DNA of 64,000 bases from Natronomonas marina (GTDB taxonomy: Archaea > Halobacteriota > Halobacteria > Halobacteriales > Haloarculaceae): positions 1,302,001 through 1,366,000 of the forward strand of contig NZ_CP101154.1 of assembly GCF_024298905.1 (NCBI RefSeq), written 5' to 3'. Positions 25,688-29,576 of the stretch are shown here, in pieces. A model generated the notes under the pieces. The model saw nothing but the letters and a program-made list of their open reading frames with translations. It was not told the origin of the DNA and searched no databases. Position 1 is the first letter of the stretch; the number at the start of each line of letters is the position of its first letter. The translations under genes and the position numbers were made by a program.

Positions 25688-25791
25688 AGTCCCTCACGTA
25701 GAACCGTCTCGTGTCGATGGATACGCACCCCGTATTGGGCACGACCGCCAAAACCACCACCAGCGATGGGTTTCAGCAGGGTCGGTCGCGC

Positions 25792-27186
25792 CTACCGCTC
25801 CCGGTAGGCGGCCTCGGCGCGGGCGATGATTTCCCGGACCGGCGCCCCCGCGTCGTCGGCCACGCGGGCCGCGTCGTCGTACTCGGCGCTGACGTCGTAG
25901 ACCGTCCCGTCGGCGTCGGCCGCGACCTTGACCGTCACCTCGAAACTCTCGCCGCCGACCTCGACGTCGACCGTCTCGAAGCCCCGGTCGGCGATCCAGC
26001 GGTGACCTGCCGCCGCCTCCCGGACGCCGAGCGTCCCGGTCTCCTCGGCCAGTCGTCTCGCGACCCTCTCGGCGTCCTCCGGTTTGACGATCACCTTCAC
26101 GAGGTGGCCGGGCCGGGACTTCTTCATCGTCGTCGGCAGTATCGTGACGTCGAGCGCGCCGACCTCTGTCAGCCGGTCCTGAAGGCCGCCGAGCACCTCC
26201 GGGGCCGCGTCGTCGAGGTTCGTCTCCAGCACGCGGACGTCGTCGCGGACGAGTCCGGCCTCGGTCCGCCCGACGGTCGCCCGGAGCACGTTCGGGTAGT
26301 CCGCGAAGGACTTCGTTCCCGCACCGTAGCCCGACGCCTCGACGTCAATCGGGGGGAGCGAGTCGACGCCCTCCGCGAAGTGCGCCAGTATCGCCGCGCC
26401 GGTCGGCGTCAGCAGTTCCGCCTCCAGCGGGCCGCCTTCCAGTCGCCAGGCTGCGGCCTCGGCGACGTATGTGACCGCGGGCGCCGGCACCGGGTAGGTG
26501 CCGTGGCTCATCGCCACCTCGCCGCCGCCGGCTGCGACGGGCGTCGTCACCACCCGGTCGACGTCGAGGTCCGCGACGAGCAGCGCCGCGCCGACGACGT
26601 CTGCGATGGCGTCGTCGGCGCCGACCTCGTGGAAGGCCGTCTCCTCGAGGGCCGTGCCGTGCACCCGCGCTTCGGCCTCCCCGAGCAACCGGAAGACGGC
26701 CCTCGCGTCGTCCTCGACGCCCGGCGGGAGGTCCATCCCCTCGAGAACCTCGACGACCTCGGCGTAGGTCCGGTGCGGACCGTGTCCTTCGGCGTGGTCG
26801 TGTTCGTGGTGGTGGTGGTCCTCACCGTGGCCCTGACCGTGTTCGTCGCGTTCGTGGTGGTGGTGGTCCTCACCGTGGCCCTGACCGTGTTCGTCGTGTT
26901 CGTGGTGGTGGTGGTCCTCACCGTGGCCCTGACCGTGTTCGTCGTGTTCGTGGTGGTGGTCCTCTCCGTGCTCGTGCTCGTCGGCCGCCTCGCCGTCGTC
27001 GGACAGCAGTACGTCCACGCTCGTCGCGCGGATGCCGTTCTTGGTGACTCGCTCGGTTCGGTACTCGACGTCGAGGGCGTCCTCGACGGGGGCGAGGGCG
27101 TCGCGGTCGGCGCCGGCGGCGAGGAGCGCCCCCAGTATCATGTCGCCGCTTGCGCCGGTTCGACCGTCGAACGCGAGCGTGGTCAT
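25792..27186 (-). CDS. larC: Nickel-pincer cofactor biosynthesis protein LarC with a repeated His-rich loop
   Basis: 464 residues. LarC installs nickel into the pyridinium-based pincer cofactor of lactate racemase and related enzymes, in a CTP-dependent step. The N-terminus [20 protein letters not shown] matches the family. The metal/CTP domain follows ([49 protein letters not shown]). The C-terminal part has [20 protein letters not shown] and [18 protein letters not shown]. Residues about 75-139 are an inserted His/Asp/Glu-rich loop built from 16-residue repeats, likely a nickel store. No larA, larB or larE is in the window. Confidence 0.93.
26803..26960. repeat. 48-bp tandem repeats encoding the LarC His-rich loop
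   Basis: Three units (26803-26850, 26851-26898, 26899-26946) are identical except for one base that changes His to Arg, followed by a partial fourth unit. Each encodes 16 residues with seven or so His plus Asp/Glu and Gly. Near-identity at DNA level indicates recent expansion by slippage or unequal exchange. Confidence 0.9.
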
Positions 27187-27353
27187 ACCTCCGAGTCGGG
27201 GGTCCGGCGCGAAAAAGCGTGCGGTGCGGTTCGGTTGGCGGGTACGGCCGCACCGACGGTTGCCTCCCGGCCGGCCGTTCCGTTCTCGAGGCGTCGTCGG
27301 CGTCGCCACGGCAAAAAACATATCTCCGGGCGGACCCGACTCTGTATATCGAA

Positions 27354-29576
27354 ATGAACGAGGTCCAACTCGAGGTTGCGAAGGCGTATCCCAACGACTC
27401 CGGGCGTGGGATCGCGCGTCTCGACCCCGACACGCTGCTGCACCTGAAACTGTCGCCTGGCGACATCATCGAAATCGAGGGCGCCGACACCACCGCGGCG
27501 AAGGTCTGGCGGGCCGACCGCCAGGACTGGAACACCGACACGGTCCGCATCGACGGGTTCACGCGGCAGAACGCCGACGTGGGCATCGGCGAACGCGTCG
27601 AAATCCGGAAGGCCGAGGCGACGAAGGCCGACAAACTCGTGCTGGCGCCGCCGGAGGAGGCCTCCGTCCAGTTCGGCTCGGACGCCGCCGGCATGGTCAA
27701 ACGGCAGATACTCAAGCGGCCCGTCGTCGAGCGCGACATCGTGCCCGTGATGAGTTCGACCAACCACCCGTTCATGCGGTCGCCGGGGCAGGCCATCCCG
27801 CTCATCGCCGTCGAGACGGACCCCGACGGCGTCTGTCTCATCACCGAGGACACCGAGGTCGAACTCCGCGAGGAACCCATCTCCGGCTTCGAGAAGACCG
27901 GCGGCGGGATCACCTACGAGGACATCGGCGGTCTCGAAAACGAGATCCAGCGCGTCCGGGAGATGGTCGAACTCCCGATGAAGCACCCCCAGATATTCAA
28001 GAAACTCGGCATCGAACCGCCCCAGGGGGTGCTGTTGCACGGTCCGCCCGGCACCGGCAAGACGCTCCTGGCGAAGGCCGTCGCCAACGAGACGTCCGCC
28101 TCGTTCTTCTCGATTGCGGGCCCGGAGATCATCTCGAAGTACTACGGCGAGTCCGAACAGCAACTCCGCGAGATCTTCGAGGACGCGACCGAGGAGTCCC
28201 CCTCTATCATCTTCATCGACGAACTGGACTCCATCGCACCGAAGCGCGAGGACGTCACCGGCGAGGTAGAGCGCCGCGTCGTCGCCCAGTTGCTGACGAT
28301 GATGGACGGCCTCGAATCGCGGGGCCAGGTCATCGTCATCGCGGCGACCAACCGCGTCGACTCGGTCGACCCCGCCCTCCGGCGCCCCGGCCGCTTCGAC
28401 CGCGAGATCGAGATCGGCGTCCCCGACGAGGTGGGCCGCAAGGAGATCCTCCAGATCCACACCCGCGGGATGCCGCTCAGCGACGACGTCACCCTCGACC
28501 GGATGGCCGACGAGACCCACGGCTTCGTCGGCGCCGACATCGAGTCGCTGACCAAGGAGGCCGCGATGAAGGCGCTGCGGCGGTACCTCCCCGAGATCGA
28601 CCTCGACGAGGAGGACATCCCGCCGAGCCTCATCGACCGCATGATAATCAAGCGGAGCGACTTCCGGGGGGCCCTGAACGAGGTCGACCCCTCGGCGATG
28701 CGGGAGGTGCTCGTCGAGTTACCGAAGGTCTCCTGGGACGACGTCGGCGGCCTCAACGAGCCGAAGAACCAGGTCAAGGAGTCCGTCGAGTGGCCGATGA
28801 ACCAGCCCGAGAAGTTCGCCCGGATGGGCATCCAGCCGCCCGCCGGCGTCCTGCTGTACGGCCCGCCCGGCACCGGCAAGACGCTGATGGCCAAGGCCGT
28901 CGCCAACGAGACCAACGCCAACTTCATCTCGGTGCGCGGCCCGCAACTGCTCTCGAAGTGGGTCGGCGAGTCCGAGAAGGCCATCCGCCAGACCTTCCGG
29001 AAGGCCCGCCAGGTCGCGCCGACGGTCATCTTCTTCGACGAACTGGACTCCCTCGCCCCGGGCCGCGGCGGCGAGACCGGCTCGAACGTCTCCGAGCGCG
29101 TCGTCAACCAGCTGCTCACCGAACTCGACGGGCTGGAGGAGATGGACGAGGTGATGGTGATCGGCGCGACGAACCGCCCGGACATGATCGACCCGGCGCT
29201 CATCCGGTCGGGCCGGTTCGACCGGCTGGTGATGATCGGCGAACCCGACGTCGAGGGACGCGAGCGCATCCTCGAGATTCACACCGGGGACACGCCGCTG
29301 TCGCCCGATGTCAGCCTGCGCGAACTGGCCGAGATCACCGACGGCTACGTCGGCTCGGACCTCGAGTCCATCGCCCGCGAGGCCGCAATCGAGGCGCTGC
29401 GAGAGGACGACGACGCCGAGGTGGTCGAGATGCGGCACTTCCGGCAGGCGCTGGACTCCGTCCGGCCGACCATCACCGACGACATCCGCGACTACTACGA
29501 GCAGGTCGAGGACGACTTCCGCGGCGGCGGTGCCGAGGCAAGTCGCCGGCAGGGCGGCCGCATCGGTTTCCAGTAG
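27354..29576 (+). CDS. cdc48: Cdc48/VAT-type AAA+ ATPase
   Basis: 740 residues. A Cdc48 N-terminal double-psi barrel plus second subdomain (about 1-185) is followed by two AAA modules. D1 has GPPGTGKT near 229 and IIFIDELD near 285. D2 has GPPGTGKT near 502 and VIFFDELD near 560. Both carry arginine-finger RRPGRFDRE / RSGRFDRL segments. The protein unfolds substrates as a hexamer and can feed the archaeal proteasome. The start is fixed by [20 protein letters not shown]. An A-rich TATA-like stretch lies at 27312-27324. Divergent from larC. Confidence 0.95.

What the first reader, a model, noticed from the sequence alone, without database searches (positions are those of the whole stretch)
26803..26960. 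Recently expanded 48-bp tandem repeats encode the metal-binding loop of LarC
Three nearly identical 48-bp units plus a partial one encode [16 protein letters not shown]-type repeats inside a nickel-handling enzyme. DNA-level identity implies very recent expansion, so copy number may vary between strains and tune metal buffering. His-rich segments occur in some LarC/HypB/UreE proteins, but long perfect tandem units are unusual. No lactate racemase gene is nearby.
Basis: partly seen in the sequence, partly recalled or inferred. Interest (0 to 1): 0.6.

Follow-up and report, generated by a model that had tools for sequence, protein, structure and literature searches.

The report
Recently duplicated histidine-rich loop in LarC
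A salt-loving archaeon's nickel-cofactor enzyme carries a floppy, histidine-rich loop that grew by recent tandem copying of a 48-base stretch; such loops, and such copying, recur in relatives, so this is a striking case of an ordinary thing.

Summary
Tandem Repeats Finder gives a 48-bp x 3.4-copy array at 26797-26960 (98% matches), in frame in larC (25792-27186, minus strand). The three full copies differ by one base (His to Arg) and by no silent change; identity by codon bias alone has P about 0.0009. "Recent" is supported: the closest relatives lack the unit. "Unusual" is weak. Of 111 LarC proteins of the same family, 108 have a loop with at least 5 His at this site, and 18 carry arrays with period at least 24 bp and at least 90% match. 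The window's array ranks second. Units differ between lineages, so expansion has recurred. One pair with 97% identical cores differs by repeat copies (loops of 89 and 54 residues), so copy number changes quickly in this family; strains of the window's species could not be compared. AlphaFold2 gives the loop no structure (residues 65-130, pLDDT under 50). larA, larB and larE homologues exist elsewhere in the genome. Likely role: a flexible Ni(II)-collecting segment on the nickel insertase. Binding is known only indirectly, from co-purification of H. volcanii LarC on Ni-NTA. Tuning by copy number is untested; His count does not track LarA presence.

The parts
25792..27186 (-). larC, nickel-pincer cofactor biosynthesis protein (464 aa; conserved start [16 protein letters not shown] at 27186)
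   Evidence: Pfam PF01969 423 bits; NCBIfam LarC1 187 bits and LarC2 121 bits; start aligned with relatives
26776..27003 (-). His-rich insert, residues 62-137 (76 aa: 28 His, 26 Asp+Glu, 13 Gly)
   Evidence: alignment of LarC homologues; composition; residues 65-130 pLDDT under 50
26797..26960 (-). 48-bp tandem array, 3.4 copies, 98% matches
26893..26940 (-). full unit, first in reading direction
26845..26892 (-). full unit, middle; CAC to CGC, His to Arg
26797..26844 (-). full unit, last in reading direction
26941..26970 (-). older partial unit, CACGGAGAGGACCACCACCACGAACACGAC, one His codon shorter
   Evidence: sequence
27354..29576 (+). divergent neighbour: CDC48/VCP-type AAA ATPase, found next to or near larC in many haloarchaea
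   Evidence: ORF (family name judged from its sequence, not from a family search); same neighbour in many relatives

Best explanation
The array lies in the His/Asp/Glu/Gly-rich, disordered insert near the N-terminus of LarC1 (between residues 61 and 138) in a haloarchaeal LarC, the enzyme that inserts nickel into the pincer-nucleotide cofactor. The insert has stretched recently by slippage or unequal recombination of an in-frame 48-bp unit, and similar stretching has happened separately, with other units, in many haloarchaeal LarC genes. Shown: position, frame, recency, recurrence, and (by prediction) disorder. Inferred: the slippage mechanism; that the imidazoles bind several Ni(II) ions and hold them near the CTP-dependent active site, as His-rich stretches do in UreE and HypB. 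The exact copy number is probably near-neutral.
For: Array in larC. Three copies silent-identical, P about 9e-4 from codon bias alone, sharing uncommon choices such as GGT (8%) and GAA (20%). Closest relatives (81, 78 and 77% core identity) have loops of 46-53 aa sharing at most 4 residues in a row with the unit. Same-site His-rich loop in 108 of 111 family LarCs; 18 of 111 with arrays of period >=24 bp and >=90% match, units unalike. Close pairs with changed loops: L121/L125 (97% core; 89 vs 54 aa) and L077/L139 (98%; 57 vs 44 aa). Loop unstructured in the model. Haloferax volcanii LarC (HVO_2381) is described as a native His-rich protein and was deleted to stop its co-purification on Ni-NTA (PMC12853182). 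larA, larB and larE present in the genome.
Against: No metal-binding measurement for this loop was found. Two members of the same genus have 12-residue loops with 0 and 3 His (L016, L015), and a solved full-length LarC aligns across this site with no insert (12bi), so the loop is not needed for the fold and perhaps not for activity. His count does not track a strong LarA match (Mann-Whitney P = 0.17).
Confidence: 0.75

Rival explanations
1. The loop is low-complexity filler: an acidic, His-rich linker that grows and shrinks by slippage in GC-rich DNA and is tolerated because it is disordered, with no role in metal supply.
For: Length and sequence turn over fast; near-absent in two members of the same genus; loops differ greatly in length at 75-80% core identity, median difference 15 aa.
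Against: His-richness is kept while the sequence turns over (108 of 111 with at least 5 His, median 14), and His-rich loops occur at the same site in two bacterial LarCs (L047, L048); plain drift would not be expected to keep His.
Confidence: 0.15
2. The loop serves as a general divalent-metal store or sink (Zn, Cu, Co, Ni), apart from cofactor synthesis.
For: His-rich stretches bind several metals (general knowledge); H. volcanii LarC is retained by Ni-NTA; His count does not track a strong LarA match.
Against: It is part of a dedicated nickel insertase, and the genome holds larA, larB and larE.
Confidence: 0.08
3. The near-identical copies are an assembly artefact (duplicated or collapsed repeat).
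For: Short tandem repeats can be misassembled; the array (164 bp) is about as long as one short read.
Against: The genome is in 2 contigs and 99.98% complete; one copy carries its own substitution; similar arrays occur in many independent assemblies.
Confidence: 0.02

Closest known systems
Haloferax volcanii LarC (HVO_2381)
   Same: Haloarchaeal LarC described as His-rich; removed from a strain because it co-purifies on Ni-NTA (PMC12853182)
   Different: Its loop sequence was not compared here; no repeat array is mentioned in the passages read
LarC loop of G022 (L082), a related genus of the same family
   Same: Same site, same kind of in-frame tandem array, more His (42)
   Different: Different unit (45 bp x 5.6, HAEDHHHADHSHDHS type), so a separate expansion
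Solved LarC proteins (LarC2 domain, PDB 6bwo; full-length LarC, PDB 12bi)
   Same: Same family by sequence; LarC2 fold matched by the model
   Different: 12bi aligns across the site with no insert
His-rich segments of UreE and HypB
   Same: His-rich, flexible nickel-binding stretch on a nickel chaperone (general knowledge)
   Different: Unrelated proteins; there the stretch is near an end of the chain, here it is internal (general knowledge)

Membership tests
LarC (nickel-pincer cofactor nickel insertase) | Match to curated LarC models above cut-off | tested here: met
   PF01969 423 bits (cut-off 22.1); TIGR00299 187 (90); NF052512 121 (50)
LarC (nickel-pincer cofactor nickel insertase) | LarC1 plus LarC2 domains in one chain with the LarC2 fold | tested here: met
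   Both models matched; predicted structure matches LarC2 structures 6bwo, 6bwq and MK0293
LarC (nickel-pincer cofactor nickel insertase) | Pathway partners LarA, LarB and LarE in the genome | tested here: met
   LarA C1:1850098, LarB C1:3366754, LarE C1:3816592, all over their cut-offs; the LarA homologue aligns with malate racemase Mar2 and LarA
LarC (nickel-pincer cofactor nickel insertase) | CTP-dependent nickel insertion activity | not testable with these tools
   needs an enzyme assay
His-rich nickel-binding loop | Binds several Ni(II) ions | not testable with these tools
   Only indirect: H. volcanii LarC co-purifies on Ni-NTA (PMC12853182)
Recent tandem expansion | Copies alike at silent sites beyond codon bias | tested here: met
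   P about 9e-4 for three copies
Recent tandem expansion | Copy number differs between strains of the species | not testable with these tools
   One genome per species is held; between close species elsewhere in the family copy number does differ

The most novel reading that the evidence does not exclude
The LarC loop is a genetically adjustable nickel buffer: recurrent tandem expansion and contraction of His-rich units across haloarchaea is selected by nickel supply and sets how much nickel each LarC holds.
Probability: 0.12. Interest if true: 0.55.

Novelty: new member of a known kind. Interest (0 to 1): 0.27.

Why it matters
His-rich metal-binding stretches are usually treated as fixed parts of nickel chaperones. 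Haloarchaeal LarC offers a natural series, from 12 residues with no His to 101 residues with 42 His, with recent copy-number change in close pairs, that would let the value of such a stretch be measured directly. Without that experiment, the array itself is an ordinary, if clean, case of repeat expansion in a disordered loop.

Tried and rejected
Strain-level copy number: the genome collections hold one genome per species, and the nearest LarC is 78% identical over the whole protein, so this could not be done. Tested whether His count follows presence of a strong LarA match: no (22 vs 16 genomes, medians 16.5 and 18, P = 0.17). Considered codon bias as the sole cause of the DNA identity: rejected. 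Considered a start codon at 27321: rejected, because homologues share the start at 27186. The 548-aa plus-strand ORF over larC (25711-27357) was set aside as antisense to a conserved gene and not tested further. Searching the array DNA across the family hits many places outside larC as well (other His-rich, low-complexity DNA), so weak hits there were not used. Eight family LarCs whose loop end did not fit the simple boundary rule were left out of the counts. Literature on LarC His-rich loops was thin in the held library, and the main LarC biochemistry paper tried was not held.

Full report
Observation. The window lies in a 3.99-Mb, two-contig genome (G000), haloarchaeal to judge by the organisms of the nearest loci. 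Tandem Repeats Finder reports one strong array, 26797-26960, period 48, 3.4 copies, 98% matches, score 321; the next best array in the window scores 74. The array is in frame on the minus strand in an ORF that matches Pfam Ni_insertion over nearly its whole length (423 bits) and NCBIfam LarC1 and LarC2. The start shared with homologues is the ATG at 27186, giving 464 aa.

What the units look like. In reading direction the loop is [76 protein letters not shown] (28 His, 26 Asp/Glu in 76 residues). The three full copies differ by one base, CAC to CGC (His to Arg), and have no silent difference. An older partial copy ([10 protein letters not shown], one His shorter) stands in front.

Is it recent? 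Codon bias here makes DNA identity cheap (CAC is 97% of His and GAC 95% of Asp codons outside the loop in seven window genes), so this had to be tested. Drawing codons independently, two copies would be silent-identical with P = 0.015 and three with P = 0.0009; the copies also share uncommon choices (GGT 8%, GAA 20%). True copying is therefore supported, although continued homogenisation would look the same. The nearest relatives (81, 78, 77% core identity) have loops of 46-53 residues that share at most 4 residues in a row with the unit.

Is it unusual? LarC was found in 132 of 146 genomes of the family. In 111 LarCs with a clean loop boundary, the loop has a median of 55 residues and 14 His; 108 have at least 5 His. 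Eighteen carry arrays with period >=24 bp and >=90% match. The window's array ranks second by score. First is G022 in another genus, 45 bp x 5.6, 97%, with 42 His in the loop. The units are unlike each other (for example SHDHDH, HDHAHDHEESG, DQSDGGHSQDRSH), so expansion has recurred. At the short end, two members of the window's own genus have 12-residue loops with 0 (L016) and 3 (L015) His. His-rich loops also sit at the same site in two bacterial LarCs (L047, L048).

Does copy number change? Strains of this species are not available. In the same family, L121 and L125 share 97% of core residues (96% of DNA over the last 300 codons) yet have loops of 89 and 54 residues, the difference being extra repeat copies; L077 and L139 (98%) have 57 and 44. 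Length change on a short timescale is thus shown for this loop in relatives and inferred for the window's species.

Structure and function. AlphaFold2 with 24 sequences gives a mostly confident fold (256 of 464 residues at pLDDT 90 or more) except residues 65-130, all below 50 and without regular secondary structure. Among solved structures the model matches the LarC2 domain (6bwo, 6bwq) and MK0293. The full-length LarC 12bi aligns up to and again from this site with no insert. LarC inserts nickel into P2TMN in a CTP-dependent way (PMC11796402). H. volcanii LarC (HVO_2381) is called a native histidine-rich protein and was deleted to stop its co-purification on Ni-NTA (PMC12853182). The best reading is a flexible Ni(II)-holding segment on the nickel insertase. 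The binding is inferred from composition and from that observation; the effect on cofactor synthesis is untested. His count does not differ between genomes with a strong LarA match and those without (22 vs 16, P = 0.17), which gives no support to tuning.

Genome context. larA, larB and larE homologues are at C1:1850098, 3366754 and 3816592, each far from larC at C1:1327795. Among solved structures the LarA homologue is closest to malate racemase Mar2, then LarA, so its substrate may not be lactate. larC sits back to back with a CDC48/VCP-type AAA ATPase gene, and that gene is next to or near larC in many relatives.

Verdict. A real, clean, recent in-frame tandem expansion in a loop where such expansions are common in haloarchaea. 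The known kind is the His-rich metal-binding stretch of nickel chaperones; this is a well-developed member. The most useful part is the natural series of loop lengths, which makes the buffer hypothesis testable.

Noticed in passing
L049:189-330 (own genome, next to larA): The rtcB-like gene just upstream of the larA homologue begins, in the open frame, with an intein-like C-terminal end (HNFLANGIVVSN followed by C), suggesting an intein in RtcB.
   Followed up: no
L121 and L125: Two species with 97% identical LarC cores differ by repeat copies in the loop (89 vs 54 residues): a natural pair for testing the effect of loop length.
   Followed up: partly
G012 and G016 (same genus; no loci): Genomes with a strong LarA match but no LarC match; G012 is only 76% complete, G016 97%. 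A LarA without LarC would be odd.
   Followed up: no
G005 (L013) and G019 (L016), same genus: Genomes at least 94% complete with LarC but no LarA match; the Lar_N search also finds nothing in the H. volcanii control. The user of the cofactor there is unknown.
   Followed up: no
window 27354-29576 +: CDC48/VCP-type AAA ATPase gene back to back with larC, kept next to or near larC in many haloarchaeal genera.
   Followed up: partly
window 25711-27357 +: A 548-aa open frame antisense to larC, in which the array reads as hydrophobic [11 protein letters not shown] repeats; probably a by-product of GC-rich codon use.
   Followed up: no
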